From an uncultured Eubacterium sp. (GTDB taxonomy: Bacteria; Bacillota; Clostridia; Peptostreptococcales; Anaerovoracaceae), in assembly GCA_947367725.1 (NCBI GenBank), contig CANBFZ010000080.1, positions 1-7,703 of the forward strand: a DNA stretch of 7,703 nucleotides. Reading direction: 5' to 3'. Below are positions 1,850 to 7,703 of this stretch, one piece after another. The position numbers were made by a program, and so were the translations under genes. The stretch's first letter is position 1. Every line of letters begins with the position of its first letter. The notes beneath the pieces were generated by a model that saw only the letters and a program-made list of their open reading frames with translations, was not told the origin of the DNA and made no database searches.

Positions 1850-3244
1850 TTAATTGATGCTAAGACCAGCACTTGCGTATCCTGCAACGGTATTGACCAG
1901 TGACAGCCCACTTGCTGACGCAGAAAATACCAGCATCAGTCGTGTTTGCGCAGTCACAGGAATATTCAGACCTGTCAATGCTCCATTTAACAAGGTTCCG
2001 ACAGAGATTACGCCAGTAAGCGCTGGTGTCAGGTTGATCAGCGTTCCGGCAATCGGTGTGAAAACGTTGTTTGGCGTTGTCGACTGATAAATCTGTGCTT
2101 TCACAGTCACATTAGAACCGACTAAAGAAAGTGCTGCAGTTGTACTGAAGAATGCGCTGAAAGAGGTAATGACCCCTGCACGCGGAACCTGGAATGCAAA
2201 GTTAGAAAGCGTTCCGCTGGCATTTGTGATATCAATGGTGGATCCCAATAGTGTGAGACCTTGCGCGCTGCTTCCAAACCCCACAAACGCAGGCAGTCCT
2301 GCAAGTCCTCCAGCGATTGTTGTCAGAGAAACTGGCGTTCCTGAAGCAAATGGAACGATTGCACCTGTACCATCCACACCTGTCGCGCCAGTTGCACCGG
2401 TCGGACCCGTTGCACCGTCTGCTCCCGTTGGACCCGTCGCGCCATCTGCTCCTGTTGGACCTGTCGCGCCGTCTGCTCCTGTTGGACCTGTTGCGCCGTC
2501 TGCTCCCGTTGGACCTGTTGCACCATCTGCTCCTGTTGGACCTGTTGCGCCGTCTGCTCCCGTTGGACCTGTTGCGCCGTCTGCTCCCGTTGGACCTGTT
2601 GCGCCGTCTGCTCCCGTTGGACCTGTCGCGCCAGTTGCACCGGTCGGACCGTCATCCCCTGGACATCCCTTCGGACCTTGTGGTCCAATTGGACCCGTTA
2701 CACCTTGTACTCCCTGCGGACCGGTTACGCCTTGCGGCCCCATAGAACCAGTGGCACCAGTCCCACCAGTTGGTCCCGGAATCCCTCTCGGACCCTGTGG
2801 TCCAATGTCACCTTGTGGGCCAACTGGACCTGTCGGACCGATCGGTCCTGCAGGTCCCTGTGGACCAATATCACCCTGGGGACCTTCGCAGCCTGGATCC
2901 CCTTTCGGCCCAATATCTCCACGAACCCCCTGGATTCCCTGGATTCCCTGCGGACCTGCGTAGCCTCTTGGGCCTGTATAACCCCTCGGTCCTGTGTTTC
3001 CCGTCGGACCAACCGGACCAGTATTGCCTCTTGGTCCTCTTGGACCAGGGGCGCCAGGAATGCCCTGCGCACCTTGCGGACCAGGTTCTCCTCTGTCCCC
3101 TTTCGGACCAGGGCAACCACTATCGCCTTTCATGCCCTGTGGACCGACCGGACCCTGATCTCCTTTGGGACCTGCCGGACCACGTTCACAACAGTTGATG
3201 CTGCACTGATTCTGGCAGCCATTATATAAATTATTTTGATTCAT
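1850..3244 (-). CDS. Collagen-like spore-surface protein with BclB-like C-terminal domain
   Basis: 464 residues. Residues 1-21 form a short cysteine-rich head (C10, C14, C18, C19). Residues 22-291 are 90 consecutive Gly-X-Y triplets without one interruption. Residues 292-464 are a hydrophobic Ala/Ser/Thr/Leu/Val-rich domain that resembles the BclB exosporium C-terminal domain (TIGR03721 type), an assignment made by eye. There is no signal peptide, LPXTG motif or transmembrane anchor at the N terminus. This suits proteins made in the mother cell and assembled on the spore from outside, as BclA is. The first 59 triplets are charged ([12 protein letters not shown]); from triplet 60 on there is no Lys or Arg, and the strand becomes Thr-rich (22 Thr in residues 199-288), a likely site of O-glycosylation. 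Cysteines also lie inside the helix at 44, 119 and 194. The start is supported by AAGGGTG at 3253-3259, 8 bases before ATG. The protein would form a trimeric filament. Confidence 0.92.
2381..2650 (-). repeat. In-frame minisatellite, 10 x 27 bp, inside the collagen gene
   Basis: Ten contiguous 27-base units encode nine residues each. The first and last (2624-2650 and 2381-2407) encode GPTGATGAT; the eight between (2408-2623) all encode GPTGADGAT. Differences among the eight are synonymous, such as GAC/GAT for Asp. A perfect 30-base direct repeat (2378-2407 and 2621-2650) closes both ends and is separated by 243 bases, exactly nine units. Such arrays change copy number by slippage or recombination without breaking the frame, as in bclA of Bacillus anthracis, where array length sets filament length. 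Confidence 0.95.
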
Positions 3245-3252
3245 TCAAAATT

Positions 3253-3259
3253 CACCCTT
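3253..3259 (-). promoter_or_regulatory. Ribosome binding site of the large collagen gene
   Basis: The minus strand reads AAGGGTG, then 8 bases, then ATG at 3244-3242. It supports this start codon, and no other in-frame start with a better site was noticed. Confidence 0.7.
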
Positions 3260-3271
3260 ATTCAATGATTT

Positions 3272-3301
3272 AGAGAAAGCGCATCGAAAGCATCTTTCTC
3301 T
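3272..3301 (-). repeat. Leader hairpin of the large collagen transcript
   Basis: AGAGAAAG at 3272-3279 is complementary to CTTTCTCT at 3294-3301, with a 14-base loop. If transcription starts about 7 bases after the CATA-type -10 at 3307-3315, this stem would sit at the extreme 5' end of the mRNA, upstream of the ribosome binding site. A 5'-terminal stem commonly protects mRNA from decay. The role here is inferred. Confidence 0.45.
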
Positions 3302-3306
3302 ACTTA

Positions 3307-3315
3307 TATTTTATG
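3307..3315 (-). promoter_or_regulatory. Putative sporulation-type -10 element (CATAAAATA)
   Basis: The minus strand reads CATAAAATA, a full match to CATANNNTA, the -10 consensus of sigma K (sigma E is related). At the sigma K -35 position (17 bases upstream) the sequence is AG rather than AC, so only half of the promoter is supported. It is placed 62 bases before the start codon of a gene expected to be expressed in the mother cell. Any AT-rich region can give such a match by chance. Confidence 0.35.
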
Positions 3316-3328
3316 CGACCGTGCGCCG

Positions 3329-3357
3329 GTTGCTACTGTTAAATCACACAGAGCAAC
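3329..3357. repeat. 10-bp inverted repeat with one bulge between the glycosyltransferase and collagen genes
   Basis: GTTGCT 3329-3334 pairs with AGCAAC 3352-3357 and CTGT 3336-3339 with ACAG 3348-3351. Base A3335 is bulged and the loop is 8 bases. It lies 25 bases after the glycosyltransferase stop codon and just upstream of the putative collagen -10. It overlaps by 5 bases a second imperfect hairpin at 3315-3333 (GC-ACCG / CGGT-GC arms), so the two cannot form together. It may end the upstream transcript (though no T run follows) or bind a regulator of the collagen promoter. Confidence 0.5.
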
Positions 3358-3381
3358 AAAGCGCGTCTTGAACCAAAAAAT

Positions 3382-4449
3382 TTATAAACCAGCAAAGTAC
3401 TGTTTATTGTAAAGATACGCCTTAGAATACGGTTTACAAGCACCAGCTTTTTCGTTATAGGCTTCCGCCTTCTCCCGATCTCCTAATTTATCATAGCATA
3501 CACAAAGCTGCATCAGCGGGATATAATCATAACAGTCCGGCAGAACGAAGCCACTGGCATATTCCTTTTTCGGTATTTGCAATGCGGTTTCATACCAATA
3601 GACCGCAAGATGGTAATTCCCATGCTGCAGAAAATAATTTCCAATTTCACAGCATAGTTCAGCCCTTGGCAAATCAAAACTCATACTGCGTAATAGCGCC
3701 ATCAGTGCAGACTGATCCTGCCCCATCCGTGTGTAGCAGCTCGCACAGACAGAACATGCCTCAATTTTATTTTCTACCCATCCCTGCTCGGAAAGCAAAA
3801 ACTGCTCCAGCACAGAAGCCGCCTCTTCATATGCCGCATGGTAATACAACTCACGTCCATAATAATATTGCTGTCGCGCCTCCAAAGTTTTTCCCTCTGC
3901 GAGCAAATTCTGATAGATCCGCAGATTGCGGTCAGGATCTCCTCCATGGATTTTTTTATGACTGACCGCAATATCAGAATACATGACCCTACCCTGGGGC
4001 GGAATGACTTCATGCACTTCACCAACCCAGCGATACTGCGGACTATTCCTGATCCATCTCTCTCTGAAGTAAGAAAAAGAAGGTTTGCCCGCTTCATCAA
4101 AAGAAGTATGATATTTCATCATCACGATGTCGATCTCTGGTGACAAAGACTGCTTTAACTTCAGAAACTGCTCTCTTTCCGATTCCTCTAACACATCATC
4201 CGCATCCATCCACATGCAGTAATCCATCGACGCTTTAGAAAAAGATACATTTCTGGCGTCCGCAAAATCGTCTTTCCACGAATAGGCATACACTTTTTCA
4301 GTATAACCTGATGCGATTTCCACCGTTCGGTCAGTAGAGCCAGTGTCTACAACGATGATTTCCTCTACAAGTTCCGCCACACTGTCAAGACAGCGTGCAA
4401 TGTGCATCTCCTCGTTTTTTACAATCATGCAAAGGCTGATTGTCGGCAT
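3382..4449 (-). CDS. Family 2 glycosyltransferase with TPR-like C-terminal tail
   Basis: 355 residues. The N-terminal half is a GT-A fold of glycosyltransferase family 2. It opens with ISLCMIVKNEE (4-14), followed by IIVVDTGSTDRT (31-42), FADARN (62-67) and the metal/nucleotide-sugar site MDADD (81-85, the DxD motif). From about residue 190 it becomes helical with TPR-like repeats (for example GNYHLAVYWYETAL and KLGDREKAEAYNEKA), as in protein glycosyltransferases that grip their acceptor. No signal peptide or membrane segment is seen, so it acts in the cytoplasm. It starts 22 bases after the short collagen gene stops, with AAAGGAGG at 4460-4467 placed 10 bases before ATG; the two are probably cotranscribed. 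By analogy with SgtA beside BclA3 in C. difficile, it probably glycosylates Thr/Ser of the neighbouring collagen-like proteins. The family and fold are firm; the acceptor is inferred and the sugar unknown. Confidence 0.9.
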   Translation of the reverse strand: MPTISLCMIVKNEEMHIARCLDSVAELVEEIIVVDTGSTDRTVEIASGYTEKVYAYSWKDDFADARNVSFSKASMDYCMWMDADDVLEESEREQFLKLKQSLSPEIDIVMMKYHTSFDEAGKPSFSYFRERWIRNSPQYRWVGEVHEVIPPQGRVMYSDIAVSHKKIHGGDPDRNLRIYQNLLAEGKTLEARQQYYYGRELYYHAAYEEAASVLEQFLLSEQGWVENKIEACSVCASCYTRMGQDQSALMALLRSMSFDLPRAELCCEIGNYFLQHGNYHLAVYWYETALQIPKKEYASGFVLPDCYDYIPLMQLCVCYDKLGDREKAEAYNEKAGACKPYSKAYLYNKQYFAGL

Positions 4450-4471
4450 ATGATCTCATCCTCCTTTTGAA

Positions 4472-5287
4472 TTACTGCCTGCAAAGTTTTTCGATGTGCA
4501 GATCCATATCGATTTTAGAAGCGTCTGCAGAAGATTGCCATGCAAAAGACAATATCGCATGTTCCGGTATCCAAATGATAAAATGTCTCGACAGCGTCAG
4601 CATTTCCTTTTGTCTTGCCGCTTCAGCATAGGCAGTATACATGGTCTGCACACACTGATTTAAAACTGGCGTTACCTTCATAAAACAGTGCCGTTTCATC
4701 ACCGCGGCGATATAATAACTGATCGCATAATAACCTGATGTCAAAGAAATCGAATGTCCATCACATAGCGCAATATTCTGCGTTATATCCGGAATTTGAA
4801 GCTTCAGCGGCAAGCTGGCATACGCCGACATGCCCAGTCCTCGATCTGCAAACGATGCAAAGATACTATTTTGCGGATAACCAGATGGACCCGCTGGTCC
4901 GCGGGGGCCAGGTTCTCCTCTTGGGCCTTGTGGTCCTGTCGCCCCCTGTGGTCCCTGCGGTCCTGTGACACCCTGCGGTCCTGGTTCTCCTCGTTCCCCC
5001 GGACAGCCCGGTGGGCCAGCTTCTCCTCTTGGACCCTGAAGCCCCTGTATTTCTATTGTCGCTGACGGTTCTGATTCCCAGTCATCCAGAGTGGCGCGCG
5101 GCGCCGGTTCTGCAGTACATGCCTGCTGGTCAAAATCCAACGCGTCAGAATCTATCTCATGGGTAAAACCCGAAGCAGGCAGCACTGCGTATAGATTGCG
5201 CTGCGCTCCCGAAATTTTTGTACTGAATGGATTCATCGAATCAAACATCCAGTTTGTAGGAAAGTTATCCAATTCAAAACACCTCAT
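4472..5287 (-). CDS. Short collagen-like protein with C1q/TNF-like C-terminal domain
   Basis: 271 residues from the ATG used here. Residues 1-81 are a unique, acidic N-terminal region ([19 protein letters not shown]) without a signal peptide. Residues 82-138 are 19 unbroken Gly-X-Y triplets, rich in GPQ, GPR and GEP and with one Cys (GCP). Residues 140-271 look like a trimerising jelly-roll domain of the C1q/TNF kind found at the end of BclA. Signs are the beta-rich [18 protein letters not shown] stretch and a last strand [10 protein letters not shown] at the C terminus. That fold call is by pattern, not by alignment. The likely role is a spore-surface (exosporium) filament or basal-layer protein, in an operon with the glycosyltransferase. 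The start is uncertain: AGGA abuts this ATG with no spacing, whereas GAGGTG at 5280-5285 stands 7 bases before an in-frame TTG at 5272-5270, which may be the true start (266 residues). Confidence 0.85.
5280..5285 (-). promoter_or_regulatory. Ribosome binding site pointing to a TTG start for the short collagen gene
   Basis: The minus strand reads GAGGTG within codons 1-3 of the ATG-started frame, then TTTTGAA, then in-frame TTG (codon 6, 5272-5270). The spacing of 7 bases is ideal, while the ATG at 5287 has only AGGA directly attached. The TTG start is therefore plausible. Confidence 0.4.
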
Positions 5288-5371: not shown

Positions 5372-5406
5372 AAGAAAATAGCAGGTCTTCTGTGAGAAAA
5401 CCTGCT
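5372..5406 (-). terminator. Terminator of the lipoyl operon
   Basis: AGCAGGT (minus strand, 5406-5400) pairs with ACCTGCT (5386-5380) over a 13-base loop, followed by ATTTTCTT. It begins 15 bases after the stop codon of the lipoyl-domain gene and before the promoter of the short collagen gene, so it separates the two operons. Confidence 0.7.
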
Positions 5407-5421
5407 CTCTCCCTTACCAAT

Positions 5422-5706
5422 TTATGTAATATACCCCAACACATCGCCTGCCTTAAAAACATGGGCGTCTTCAATTAAAATTTCAGTCAGCACCCCCGTT
5501 GCTGGTGCTTTGATTTCTATTGTCTTCTTATCCACTTCCCCTTCACAGATGACCTGACCTTCACACACGCTGTCACCTGTTTCGCAAAGCCAAGTCACGA
5601 TACTCTTCTTTTCGCTCAAATCAATTGGTTCCTTCATACATGCACAGTTTCTGTACGGCTGTGGTTTCGGAAGCAAATGATCTGGTACAATAATCGCAGT
5701 TGCCAT
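5422..5706 (-). CDS. Free-standing lipoyl-domain (biotin/lipoyl attachment) carrier protein
   Basis: 94 residues. From about residue 24 to 94 it is a complete lipoyl domain of the kind found at the front of E2 acyltransferases, with the hairpin turn VDKKTIEI in which K60 is the expected lipoylated lysine (equivalent to the K of ETDKA). Supporting features are TGDSVCEGQVI before the turn, and KAPATGVLTEIL and FKAGDVLGYI after it. It lacks the biotin motif AMKM and has no E2 catalytic or peripheral-subunit-binding domain, so it is a small carrier rather than an enzyme. Residues 1-23 are an extension with C21 and C23; C41, C48 and C54 lie in the domain, the last only six residues before K60. Its ribosome binding site AAGGAGG (5715-5721) is inside the last codons of the gene before it, with 8 bases to ATG, which suggests coupled translation. 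It probably carries lipoate as a swinging arm between the dehydrogenase encoded upstream and an unidentified partner. Confidence 0.87.
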   Translation of the reverse strand: MATAIIVPDHLLPKPQPYRNCACMKEPIDLSEKKSIVTWLCETGDSVCEGQVICEGEVDKKTIEIKAPATGVLTEILIEDAHVFKAGDVLGYIT

Positions 5707-5709
5707 TGT

Positions 5710-6297
5710 CTATCCCTCCTTATAAAACGGACATGTCTCTTCCAGACATTGTGCATTCTTCCTATGATAGTTACACTGGATATCCTTGGAAATTTCCAGG
5801 TGCAACCCGCATGTTTCATTGATATAAGGCACGCCTTCCAATGCAGCAAGAAACGTGGTTCTCTTACAGCATCTCGGTCCTGGATATTTTGCAATCGCAA
5901 GCAGACACCTGCCTGTACCCTCGTTGGCCCATTGCCAGTTTTCCACTGCCAGTGGACTGCCGCCTGTATACACACTGATAAAAATTCCAACACCTACCGC
6001 CGCACCGCACGCTCCGCAATTTCCACAAAATCCCGGCGGCACAGTTCTCGCCCGTTCTTCCGTGATAGAAAGCCACTGATCCAGTTCCTCCCAAGACTTC
6101 CCGTCCTCCATAGCCGCCAGGGTCAAAAGGGCGGCAGGCATGATAAAGTGGTGATACGGACAGTGCATCAAAATTCCTTCCATATTCATCAGCTCCATCA
6201 GTGCATCCTCTGTTTTTATCATTTTTCCGGTCTCATAGATGCGTTTACAGACCTCGCGCATTGCTGCAAAAACTTCGTCTTTCATCATAAATGCCAT
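5710..6297 (-). CDS. Cysteine-rich protein of unknown function, resembles DUF5714 family
   Basis: 195 residues with 12 cysteines: 17, 46, 91, 94, 97, 131, 143, 144, 163, 175, 184 and 189. The strongest motifs are HCPYHH (45-50), GFCGNCGACGAA (89-100, two CxxC steps), GPRCCKR (140-146) and a C-terminal cluster (C175, C184, C189). There is no signal peptide. A small-residue, weakly hydrophobic stretch follows the CxxCxxC motif (98-110) but is short for a membrane helix. The pattern is that of DUF5714 proteins, a family without a settled function; the match is from memory of the motif pattern, not a search. Spacing suits an iron-sulfur cluster or other metal, or thiol redox chemistry. The gene starts one base after the lplA stop (TGA-C-ATG), with AAGGAG 8 bases upstream, and overlaps the ribosome binding site of the lipoyl gene. 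This context ties it to lipoyl chemistry. Confidence 0.75.
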   Translation of the reverse strand: MAFMMKDEVFAAMREVCKRIYETGKMIKTEDALMELMNMEGILMHCPYHHFIMPAALLTLAAMEDGKSWEELDQWLSITEERARTVPPGFCGNCGACGAAVGVGIFISVYTGGSPLAVENWQWANEGTGRCLLAIAKYPGPRCCKRTTFLAALEGVPYINETCGLHLEISKDIQCNYHRKNAQCLEETCPFYKEG

Positions 6298-6298
6298 G

Positions 6299-7303
6299 TC
6301 ATTGACTCCTTCCCTCTAAAAAATCTAAAATCTCCGCTCTGCTCTCCGTTCCAAAAAATGGGCGTAAATCCAGTTCTGCCAGTGCAGTTTCGATAGCACC
6401 TCTGGTAAACACGCACCCCTGCAGCAATGCAGCAATTTCCTCAAAATCTCCTGCTGCAAGGTAATCTCCCGTAAAACAACAGTGCTTTATCTTACCGCCT
6501 TTCATCTCTGCATGAAATTCCACCATCCCTACAGGAAATCTGCAGCGGTTCTCCATGGTATACCCTGGATTTCTGCCGATGTTCCATGCGTTGGTTCCAT
6601 ATTTCTCTGACATGAGTTGTTCCACGCGCGCCAGCTCCTTGGCATTGCTTATCGGTGCAGGCTTACAAACGGTAGCAAGTGTACTGCACCAGTCTGCAAA
6701 AAATCCATCACAATCCAGGCGCTTAAGCGCTGGCACCAGGTTGCGCAGATTGCCAACTCTGCTGCGCACCGAGGGAATTCCCTTGCTGCGCAATTTTTCA
6801 CTGCGCGGTGTCAATACAGAAGAAAGGCTGCAAAGATCGCTATCGTAAAGCACACAGCCATGGATGATGCCCCGCGCTTCTCGCTGGGTCATAGCAGTTC
6901 CACAGATCTTTACAATTGCGCCCGCCGTATCTGTCATACAGATATCGTTGCGTCCCGATAAAAAACACGCAGCACCGCGGCTTTGCAGAAAATCCAGGAT
7001 CAGCGACAGTCCCTTTTTCTGCTGTGCCACAACATCTCCCTCTACAAATATATAGGAAAGATTGATGTTGCCCAGGTCATGGTATACGGCGCCGCCGCCC
7101 GTCAGCCGTCGCACAATAGGAATGTCTTTCTGCTGGCAAACCTGCGTATTGACTTCTGCCCATGTATTCTGATGACGCCCCACGATGACCGACGGCTCGT
7201 TTCTCCACAAATAAATGGTGTCCTCTCTGGTCTGCTCCAGCAGTGTTTCCTCCCGCGCCAAATTGTGTCTTGGGTCAAAACTGTCTTCGATGATTAAACG
7301 CAC
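6299..7303 (-). CDS. lplA: Lipoate-protein ligase A, two-domain form
   Basis: 334 residues, the usual length for the two-domain enzyme. It activates free lipoate with ATP to lipoyl-AMP and transfers it to the lysine of a lipoyl domain in the cytoplasm. Motifs are RRLTGGGAVYHDLGNIN (65-81, the lipoyl-AMP site), KICGTA (132-137, with catalytic K132; KISGSA is common in the family) and GIIHGCVLYDSDL (145-157). The small accessory domain is present from about 225 to 330 (NPGYTMENRCRFPVGM, then GKIKHCCFTGDY), which suits full ligase rather than transferase activity. The start is GTG at 7303-7301: AGGAGG sits at 7309-7314, 5 bases away, and the gene overlaps the lpd stop by 10 bases. C134 replaces the usual serine beside the catalytic lysine. 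Its natural substrate is probably the carrier encoded two genes downstream, although it may also serve other lipoyl proteins of the cell. Confidence 0.93.
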   Translation of the reverse strand: MRLIIEDSFDPRHNLAREETLLEQTREDTIYLWRNEPSVIVGRHQNTWAEVNTQVCQQKDIPIVRRLTGGGAVYHDLGNINLSYIFVEGDVVAQQKKGLSLILDFLQSRGAACFLSGRNDICMTDTAGAIVKICGTAMTQREARGIIHGCVLYDSDLCSLSSVLTPRSEKLRSKGIPSVRSRVGNLRNLVPALKRLDCDGFFADWCSTLATVCKPAPISNAKELARVEQLMSEKYGTNAWNIGRNPGYTMENRCRFPVGMVEFHAEMKGGKIKHCCFTGDYLAAGDFEEIAALLQGCVFTRGAIETALAELDLRPFFGTESRAEILDFLEGRSQ

Positions 7304-7703
7304 AAAAGCCTCCTGACTGCCTCTTTCAAAAGTTCCCCTTCTGTCGGATGCGGCAGCACCATCTGCAGAAAAGTTTCTGCTCGCAGCTCTGCTGCTACTG
7401 CCATCTGTCCGATCTGAATGGTTTCTGACGCCAGTGGTGTGAACAAATGAAAGCCGCGCAGCTTGTGGCTGTCTGCCTCCATGACAACTTTCACAAAGCC
7501 GCCCTGCGCCCCAAAAATCAATCCTGCAGCTGTCAGGTCAATGGGATAATAACTTTCTAAAAGCCCTTCCCCACAGAGACTTCCTGTCGTTGCAGCTTCC
7601 AGCGGCGTAAAAATACACTGACTAAATACCGCAGCAGAAGTTTCTTGCACCGGCTGCGCAGCCGCTCCATCCCTGTGGGCAGCAGCAAGGGCTGCACCCG
7701 TAC
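7294..7703 (-). CDS. lpdA: Dihydrolipoamide dehydrogenase, C-terminal part (5' end beyond window edge)
   Basis: The frame is open to the right edge; only about 136 residues are visible. They cover the end of the FAD domain (TGAALAAAHRDGAA, the region after the GDA motif) and the dimerisation domain. Family signs are CIFTPLEAATTG (usually V-Y-T-x-P-E-x-A-x-V-G), GGFVKVVMEADSHKLRGFHLFTPLASE, and the active-site PHPTEGELLKEA, where the His and the Glu five residues later form the catalytic dyad seen in HPTxxE. The enzyme reoxidises dihydrolipoyl groups with NAD+ through FAD and a disulfide; those parts are outside the window. The canonical AHPTLSE is here PHPTEGE, and the AxVG turn is altered, so this is a divergent member. 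The GTG at 7650 is internal, not the start. The ribosome binding site and start of lplA lie inside its 3' end, so the genes are cotranscribed. Confidence 0.88.
   Translation of the reverse strand, partial: TGAALAAAHRDGAAAQPVQETSAAVFSQCIFTPLEAATTGSLCGEGLLESYYPIDLTAAGLIFGAQGGFVKVVMEADSHKLRGFHLFTPLASETIQIGQMAVAAELRAETFLQMVLPHPTEGELLKEAVRRLLCV
7309..7314 (-). promoter_or_regulatory. Ribosome binding site fixing the GTG start of lplA
   Basis: AGGAGG on the minus strand lies within the last codons of the lpd gene, 5 bases before GTG 7303-7301. No ATG in the frame has a comparable site near the N-terminal motif RLIIED, so the GTG start is favoured. Confidence 0.7.

What the first reader, a model, noticed from the sequence alone, without database searches (positions are those of the whole stretch)
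5422..7703. Compact lipoyl module: dehydrogenase, ligase, cysteine-rich protein and orphan lipoyl carrier
Seen directly: four same-strand genes with overlaps of or gaps under 10 bases, ribosome binding sites inside upstream genes, and a terminator after the last. Established: LplA loads lipoate on lipoyl domains and Lpd reoxidises them. Not explained by the standard complexes: the carrier is a bare 94-residue lipoyl domain without E2 catalysis, no E1, E2 or glycine-cleavage gene is present here, and a DUF5714-like protein sits between ligase and carrier. Inference: this is a self-contained lipoyl redox or acyl-carrier pathway in which the cysteine-rich protein is the missing partner. It is reminiscent in logic of the lipoate-binding proteins with dedicated ligases known from sulfur-oxidising Hdr-like systems, but no Hdr gene is visible.
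Basis: partly seen in the sequence, partly recalled or inferred. Interest (0 to 1): 0.7.

Follow-up and report, generated by a model that had tools for sequence, protein, structure and literature searches.

The report
Lipoyl module tied to methylamine demethylation
Gut bacteria of the Emergencia group carry a four-gene kit (a small lipoyl carrier, the enzyme that likely loads it, the enzyme that likely recycles it, and a cysteine-rich protein that in many relatives is fused to the carrier), and every genome of the genus sample that holds it also holds a gene cluster predicted to strip methyl groups from trimethylamine, so lipoate probably has a job there that has not been described.

Summary
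The minus strand carries the end of a dihydrolipoyl dehydrogenase (cut by the contig end), LplA, a DUF5714 protein and a 94-residue lipoyl carrier, packed like an operon. The cassette recurs in 8 of 13 genomes of the genus; no E1, E2 or Hdr gene was recognised beside it. The cysteine-rich gene really is the carrier's partner: both domains are fused in 26 of 120 listed homologues and 8 of 80 named loci. In 7 of 8 cassette genomes the cassette's LplA is the only one found, none of the 13 has GcvH or lipA over cut-off, and a full E2 core occurs only in G004. The context is new: all 8 cassette genomes, and none of the other 5, encode an MtaA-type corrinoid methyltransferase with a C-terminal CAAC domain, within a pyrrolysine cluster for tri- and dimethylamine. 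In two named loci the DUF5714-lipoyl fusion sits in such a cluster. Best reading: a dithiol relay, NADH to Lpd to carrier to DUF5714, serving corrinoid demethylation; the exact step is inferred. Boldest open reading: dihydrolipoamide replaces coenzyme M as methyl acceptor. Against necessity: 33 of 40 sampled genomes with that methyltransferase have no DUF5714 hit.

The parts
7294..7703 (-). dihydrolipoyl dehydrogenase (Lpd), C-terminal dimerisation part with the HPT-E base; the N-terminal part lies beyond the contig end
   Evidence: PF02852 48.7 bits; full-length orthologues of 404-440 aa in six genus loci; CxxxxC can be read by eye in 9 of 9 Lpd N-termini printed (the script's own, stricter pattern returned none)
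6299..7303 (-). lipoate-protein ligase LplA, 334 aa, GTG start
   Evidence: TIGR00545 306.8 bits over cut-off 280; PF21948 and PF10437; RRLTGGGAVYHD and KICGTA present
5710..6297 (-). DUF5714 cysteine-rich protein, 195 aa
   Evidence: PF18978 169.5 bits; all-helical AlphaFold2 model, mean pLDDT 94.6
5860..5880 (-). GPRCCKR motif of DUF5714 (residues 140-146) with the vicinal Cys143-Cys144
   Evidence: G140, R142, C143, C144, K145 and R146 invariant in 80 aligned DUF5714 proteins, all found with the window's own protein
5422..5706 (-). 94-residue lipoyl carrier
   Evidence: PF00364 53.3 bits
5527..5529 (-). codon of Lys60, predicted lipoylation site
   Evidence: Lys in 33 of 33 ungapped rows of 34 aligned carriers
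5638..5646 (-). Cys21-x-Cys23 motif of the carrier's N-terminal extension
   Evidence: C21 in 33 of 34 and C23 in 34 of 34 aligned carriers
5380..5406 (-). terminator-like hairpin after the carrier gene
   Evidence: 12 pairs then ATTTTCTT; such sites are as frequent in shuffles

Best explanation
This is a dedicated lipoyl module in which LplA likely loads lipoate onto a small carrier, Lpd likely keeps it reduced with NADH, and the carrier likely hands its dithiol electrons to DUF5714, which would serve corrinoid-dependent demethylation (in Emergencia, predicted to be that of tri- and dimethylamine). Shown: the gene order, the DUF5714-carrier fusions, the scarcity of other recognised lipoate users in these genomes, and the co-occurrence with an MtaA-type methyltransferase that ends in a CAAC thioredoxin-like domain and lies in a pyrrolysine cluster. 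Inferred: lipoylation of Lys60, the direction NADH to Lpd to carrier to DUF5714 (through its Cys143-Cys144 pair), and the final acceptor. Most likely acceptor: the CAAC domain of the methyltransferase; next, the RACo-type reactivator of the corrinoid protein.
For: Conserved cassette in 8 of 13 genus genomes. Fusions: PF00364 and PF18978 in one protein in 26 of 120 listed homologues and in 8 of 80 named loci, at three places in the DUF5714 tree, one of them (L105) on a weakly supported branch. Lipoyl next to or fused with DUF5714 in 31 of 80 named loci; LplA within 8 kb in 15 of those 31 against 0 of the other 49, Lpd within 5 kb in 11 of 31 against 0 of 49. LplA in exactly the 8 cassette genomes of 13, with a second copy only in G004; GcvH over cut-off in 0 of 13; full E2 core (211 bits) only in G004; lipA over cut-off in 0 of 13. 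MtaA-Trx at 770 bits or more in exactly the 8 cassette genomes, 0 of 5 others, 1 chance in 1287 if genomes were independent. In 6 of 6 clusters fetched at length it lies with two corrinoid proteins, split MttB and MtbB, RACo, PylB, C, D, Sc, Sn and CobW by local profile, tRNA-Pyl in 6 of 6; family identities checked on L190/L191 proteins, the in-frame TAG read in one MttB and one MtbB. The fusion sits in such a cluster in L105 and L112. All 39 DUF5714 rows with lipoyl or MtaA-Trx nearby lie outside a supported 38-row clade. Carrier signature CxC, C54 (30 of 33), K60.
Against: In Emergencia the cassette is not next to the demethylation cluster. Of 31 lipoyl loci, 17 (7 of them genus loci) have none of CobW, MtaA-Trx, corrinoid protein, RACo or Pyl genes within 10 kb. 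MtaA-Trx within 10 kb is not enriched at lipoyl loci over other DUF5714 loci (8 of 31 against 8 of 49, p=0.39); CobW 12 of 31 against 9 of 49, p=0.07. In the class sample 33 of 40 MtaA-Trx genomes have no DUF5714 hit and 37 of 40 no DUF5714-lipoyl pair found, so the module is not essential to that enzyme. G003 has PylB but no cassette and no MtaA-Trx; its contig ends inside RACo. Pyl genes of G001 are seen only as a 42-residue PylB stretch at a contig end. E2-core-like proteins of about 290-300 aa, matching only the last third of PF00198 but over its cut-off, occur in 7 genomes with and without the cassette; PF00364 itself was not searched. The genus pattern may reflect one gain or loss. No biochemical evidence exists, and no solved structure resembling DUF5714 was found.
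Confidence: 0.45

Rival explanations
1. The carrier's dihydrolipoyl arm is the methyl acceptor: the MtaA-type enzyme, whose archaeal relatives methylate the thiol of coenzyme M, methylates protein-bound dihydrolipoamide, and DUF5714 or a second corrinoid protein passes the methyl on; Lpd rescues arms that become oxidised.
For: The enzyme's relatives are MtaA/CmuA methyltransferases (TIGR01463 156 bits for the L115 copy, below its 235.4 cut-off); it coexists with the carrier in all 8 cassette genomes; no coenzyme M is expected in these bacteria (recalled); two corrinoid proteins in 6 of 6 full-length clusters.
Against: 37 of 40 sampled MtaA-Trx genomes show no DUF5714-lipoyl pair. A thioether on lipoyl would be hard to clear and no S-methyl-lipoyl carrier is known to me (recalled). 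MTHFR is present in 12 of 13 genomes regardless of the cassette, so tetrahydrofolate is an ordinary alternative acceptor.
Confidence: 0.12
2. The module delivers electrons for reductive reactivation of inactive Co(II) corrinoid through RACo rather than to the methyltransferase.
For: RACo-type proteins lie in the genus clusters and within 10 kb of DUF5714 in 6 of 31 lipoyl loci; the physiological donor of such activators is unsettled (recalled).
Against: Dihydrolipoamide is a weak reductant for that step (recalled potentials); RACo is within 10 kb in 3 of 49 loci without lipoyl too.
Confidence: 0.15
3. DUF5714 and the dithiol carrier hold or deliver a metal (zinc for the MtaA site or cobalt) together with the CobW GTPase, and Lpd only keeps the thiols reduced.
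For: CobW within 10 kb in 12 of 31 lipoyl loci; DUF5714-CobW fusions in L124 and L134; two invariant cysteines in a CxC of 9 aligned CobW proteins; DUF5714 has 23 invariant positions in 195 residues, among them six Cys (91, 97, 143, 144, 175, 184) and His49 and His50; its relative MbdU is named metal-binding (PMC13188914, passages).
Against: A ligase plus a dehydrogenase is an elaborate way to hold a metal; CobW is not within 10 kb of any of the 7 genus loci counted, though one lies in 6 of 6 full-length pyl clusters.
Confidence: 0.15
4. The cassette is a thiol-redox system unrelated to demethylation (for example peroxide or metalloid detoxification) and merely shares hosts with it.
For: The Lpd-lipoyl-AhpD peroxidase of mycobacteria is a precedent (recalled); 17 of 31 lipoyl loci lack demethylation genes within 10 kb; other DUF5714 proteins sit in molybdenum-hydroxylase and radical SAM contexts.
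Against: 8 of 8 against 0 of 5 co-occurrence, fusion inside pyl clusters in L105 and L112, tree grouping.
Confidence: 0.13

Closest known systems
Lipoate-binding proteins (LbpA) with dedicated ligases in sulfur-oxidising Hdr-like systems (recalled)
   Same: small stand-alone lipoyl carrier with its own ligase, outside 2-oxoacid dehydrogenases
   Different: no Hdr-like gene recognised (no profile run); the carrier matches PF00364, the E2/biotinyl type, and no GcvH model matched it; Lpd and DUF5714 are the partners; demethylation context
Mycobacterial Lpd - lipoyl E2 - AhpD - AhpC peroxidase (recalled)
   Same: Lpd and a lipoyl domain used as an electron shuttle to a cysteine protein
   Different: there the lipoyl domain belongs to a working E2; here it is a dedicated carrier with its own ligase and a DUF5714 partner
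Pyrrolysine-dependent tri- and dimethylamine methyltransferase system (MttB, MtbB, corrinoid proteins, RamA/RACo)
   Same: this cluster is found in the cassette genomes
   Different: a second methyltransferase with a CAAC thioredoxin-like domain, a CobW GTPase, and the lipoyl cassette elsewhere in the genome
Acetoin-type dehydrogenase with split E2, as in Emergencia timonensis (L040)
   Same: a bare lipoyl domain of 87 residues, with another LplA and Lpd in L279
   Different: has E1 and a separate E2 core; the window-type cassette is a second locus in that genome
MbdU double selenoprotein (NF045648) and radical SAM-DUF5714 proteins
   Same: contain a DUF5714 region
   Different: the window protein scores 63.9 bits against a 600 cut-off, has no in-frame TGA, and goes with a lipoyl carrier

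Membership tests
2-oxoacid or acetoin dehydrogenase complex | E1 and E2 acyltransferase genes with the lipoyl domain | tested here: not met
   none in the window; BLAST with E1 alpha, a presumed E1 beta and an E2 core found no match in L031-L037 or in lipoyl loci (one weak 21% match in L135 only); full E2 core only in G004 at another locus. Only 4 of 8 genus loci show DNA upstream of lpd, and 7 genomes have partial E2-core-like proteins over the PF00198 cut-off elsewhere
Glycine cleavage system | GcvH-type lipoyl protein | tested here: not met
   PF01597 over cut-off in 0 of 13 genus genomes, one sub-cut-off match in G012; the carrier is PF00364
Lipoate-protein ligase A | LplA catalytic and C-terminal domains over the curated score | tested here: met
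   TIGR00545 306.8 over 280; PF21948 and PF10437
Dihydrolipoyl dehydrogenase | FAD/NAD domains with CxxxxC and C-terminal HPT-E | tested here: inconclusive
   only the C-terminal part is in the window; relatives show CxxxxC by eye in 9 of 9, the base motif in 6 of 9; TIGR01350 matches are below cut-off in the two proteins tested
sHdr/LbpA lipoate system | Hdr-like genes with a lipoate-binding protein | tested here: inconclusive
   no such gene recognised among the proteins scanned, but no Hdr profile was run
Pyrrolysine-dependent methylamine demethylation (cassette as part of it) | cassette and pathway occur together | tested here: inconclusive
   MtaA-Trx 8 of 8 against 0 of 5; PylB full length in 6 of 8 and at contig ends in 2, but also in 1 of 5 without cassette
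DUF5714 (PF18978) | Pfam gathering score | tested here: met
   169.5 over 26.2 bits

The most novel reading that the evidence does not exclude
Protein-bound dihydrolipoamide replaces coenzyme M: a lipoyl carrier accepts the methyl group from a corrinoid protein by way of an MtaA-thioredoxin methyltransferase, DUF5714 moves the methyl on, and lipoate thus becomes a one-carbon (methyl) carrier in bacterial trimethylamine degradation.
Probability: 0.1. Interest if true: 0.95.

Novelty: new variant of a known kind. Interest (0 to 1): 0.7.

Why it matters
Lipoate has few known jobs. Here genomes without a lipA above cut-off keep a lipoate ligase for what looks like a single small carrier, and that carrier occurs with the machinery predicted to remove trimethylamine, the precursor of a compound linked to heart disease. 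Emergencia was among the groups most active in trimethylamine-lowering genes in gut metatranscriptomes (PMC10653893, passages seen). If the link is real, lipoate supply would limit a trimethylamine-lowering pathway, and the open question of where these bacterial MtaA-type enzymes put the methyl group becomes testable. It also gives the unknown family DUF5714 a defined partner.

Tried and rejected
Standard lipoyl complexes: rejected (membership test). Hdr-like system: no gene recognised, not tested with a profile.

Literature: DUF5714 in 0 papers; lipoyl domain with corrinoid, methyltransferase and lipoate-protein ligase in 0; corrinoid with CobW, thioredoxin, trimethylamine and methyltransferase in 0; none of the 10 listed of 47 held 'lipoate'. 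These searches cover only an open-licence library. Haft's two selenoprotein papers were not held.
Full report
What is in the window. The window is one whole contig, G000:C80, of a draft genome that is 73.64% complete. Its minus strand carries, in transcription order, the end of Lpd, LplA, a DUF5714 protein and a 94-residue lipoyl carrier, with a 10-base overlap and gaps of 1 and 3 bases and a hairpin after the last gene. Genus relatives include contigs whose lengths equal those of named Emergencia records, so the host is taken to be an Emergencia-group member of the Anaerovoracaceae; that is inferred.

The cassette is conserved. Searches of 61 genomes with the carrier and of 119 with PF18978 find the pair in the same 8 of 13 genus genomes. 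The order Lpd, LplA, DUF5714, carrier is kept in all 8; Lpd is cut by the contig end in G000 and G005. In G001 DUF5714 and the carrier are one protein of 328 residues. Upstream DNA is available in 4 loci; there a DUF4230 gene diverges from lpd.

DUF5714 is the carrier's partner. Of 230 proteins found with the window's DUF5714, 120 are listed and 26 of these carry both PF18978 and PF00364. A scan of named genomes kept the best 80 of 252 loci; in 31 of 80 a lipoyl domain is adjacent or fused to DUF5714, 8 of them fused. LplA lies within 8 kb in 15 of these 31 and in 0 of the other 49; Lpd within 5 kb in 11 of 31 and 0 of 49. Without the 7 genus loci, LplA is 8 of 24 against 0 of 49 and Lpd 4 of 24 against 0 of 49. 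In the tree of these 80 DUF5714 domains, 38 rows form a supported clade (100/96) with neither lipoyl nor MtaA-Trx nearby; the other 42 rows are 31 with lipoyl, 8 with MtaA-Trx only, and 3 with neither (L126, L128, L142).

Few other lipoate users. In the 13 genus genomes LplA occurs in exactly the 8 with the cassette, once each except a second copy in G004. GcvH is over cut-off in none. A full E2 core occurs only in G004, in an acetoin-type locus with its own bare lipoyl domain. Seven other genomes, with and without the cassette, have proteins of about 290-300 residues that match only the last third of the E2 core, over its cut-off; their role is unknown, and no lipoyl domain was found in the three scanned. 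The carrier search itself gave one further genus hit each in G000 (a 167-residue frame just upstream of a 462-residue one that I take for biotin carboxylase, unscanned) and G004, but PF00364 was not searched. lipA is over cut-off in none, so lipoate is presumably taken up. Draft assemblies can hide genes.

The demethylation link. In loci of other Bacillota and one Synergistota record, neighbours of DUF5714 of this clade include a CobW GTPase, an MtaA/CmuA-like methyltransferase, corrinoid proteins and RACo. All 13 such methyltransferases aligned end in a domain with CAAC; it is Thioredoxin_3 over cut-off in the one non-genus copy scanned with Pfam. Profile A4 found the enzyme at full length (770 to 779 bits) in exactly the 8 cassette genomes and in 0 of 5 others; with independent genomes this has a chance of 1 in 1287, but they are related. 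In 6 of 6 clusters fetched at length it lies with two corrinoid proteins, split MttB and MtbB, RACo, PylB, PylC, PylD, PylSc, PylSn and CobW and tRNA-Pyl; Pyl, MttB and MtbB identities were checked with NCBIfam on L190 and L191 proteins, the MttB and MtbB pieces scoring below full-length cut-offs, and one in-frame TAG was read in one MttB and one MtbB. The clusters of G001 and G000 are cut short; G000 has MtaA-Trx on C287 and the PylB end, PylC, PylSc, PylD and tRNA-Pyl on C274, G001 only a 42-residue PylB stretch at a contig end. PylB is over cut-off in 7 of 13: 6 with the cassette and G003 without, whose contig ends inside RACo. In L105 the DUF5714-lipoyl fusion lies between an ABC transporter and PylSc on one strand; in L112 it lies beside CobW, MtaA-Trx, MttB and MtbB.

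How far the link goes. In a class sample of 391 genomes MtaA-Trx occurs in 40 (E 1e-60 or better) and DUF5714 in 28 (E 1e-30 or better). Of the 28, 3 have a lipoyl gene within about 1.5 kb (G000, G488, G319), and all 3 have MtaA-Trx; 7 of the 28 have it in all. But 33 of the 40 MtaA-Trx genomes have no DUF5714 hit at that threshold. Near DUF5714 in named loci MtaA-Trx is not significantly commoner with lipoyl (8 of 31) than without (8 of 49), and 17 of 31 lipoyl loci have no demethylation gene within 10 kb. So DUF5714 of this clade goes with the methyltransferase, lipoyl goes with DUF5714, and the methyltransferase can apparently work without both.

Mechanism. Conserved parts fit a thiol relay: CxxxxC in Lpd (read by eye), Lys60 with a CxC and a third cysteine in the carrier, invariant Cys143-Cys144 in DUF5714, CAAC in the methyltransferase. 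I infer the flow NADH to Lpd to carrier to DUF5714 and on to the methyltransferase domain or to corrinoid reactivation. AlphaFold2 gives a confident all-helical DUF5714 (pLDDT 94.6) and a fusion model (91.4, pTM 0.72), with no solved relative found. Nothing here shows electron transfer.

Known and new. Pyrrolysine-type mttB in Emergencia genomes, and its expression in the gut, is in print (PMC10653893, passages); Bilophila likewise (PMC7593587, start of abstract and one passage; Bilophila itself from PMC10653893). A dedicated lipoyl carrier with ligase is known from sulfur oxidisers (recalled). I found no paper joining lipoate to corrinoid demethylation or naming DUF5714 (open-licence library only). 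I rate it a new variant of a known kind, categorically new only if the lipoyl arm proves to carry methyl.

Noticed in passing
L088:344-9661: A second organisation joining DUF5714 and lipoate: Lpd-like, ferredoxin, a DGC-GcvH fusion, DGC, LplA-like, a radical SAM-DUF5714 fusion and a thioredoxin-thioredoxin reductase-like fusion.
   Followed up: partly
L135:8157-10480: In a Thermoproteota record, a GcvH-like protein, two DGC-like proteins and DUF5714 in a row, by local profiles.
   Followed up: no
L198-L226 and L255-L273: MtaA-type methyltransferase with C-terminal CAAC domain, in 40 of 391 class genomes and mostly beside CobW in the loci read.
   Followed up: partly
L124:9965-11689; L134:10010-11683: DUF5714 fused to a CobW GTPase (Pfam).
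   Followed up: partly
L040:7554-10538: Emergencia timonensis: E1 alpha, a bare 87-residue lipoyl domain and a separate 231-residue E2 core.
   Followed up: partly
L094:922-1818; L095:1435-2331; L096:955-1824: Proteins of about 290-300 residues matching only the last third of the 2-oxoacid dehydrogenase E2 core, in 7 genus genomes with and without the cassette.
   Followed up: partly
L190:10041-10760: A 239-residue protein between MtaA-Trx and RACo with no Pfam or NCBIfam match; fused to RACo in L112.
   Followed up: no
window 1850-5287: Two collagen-like proteins flank a glycosyltransferase whose best NCBIfam match is SunS, below cut-off.
   Followed up: no
L086:2794-4794: DUF5714 fused to a MobA-like NTP transferase and a histidine phosphatase domain in an XdhC/molybdenum-hydroxylase cluster.
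   Followed up: no
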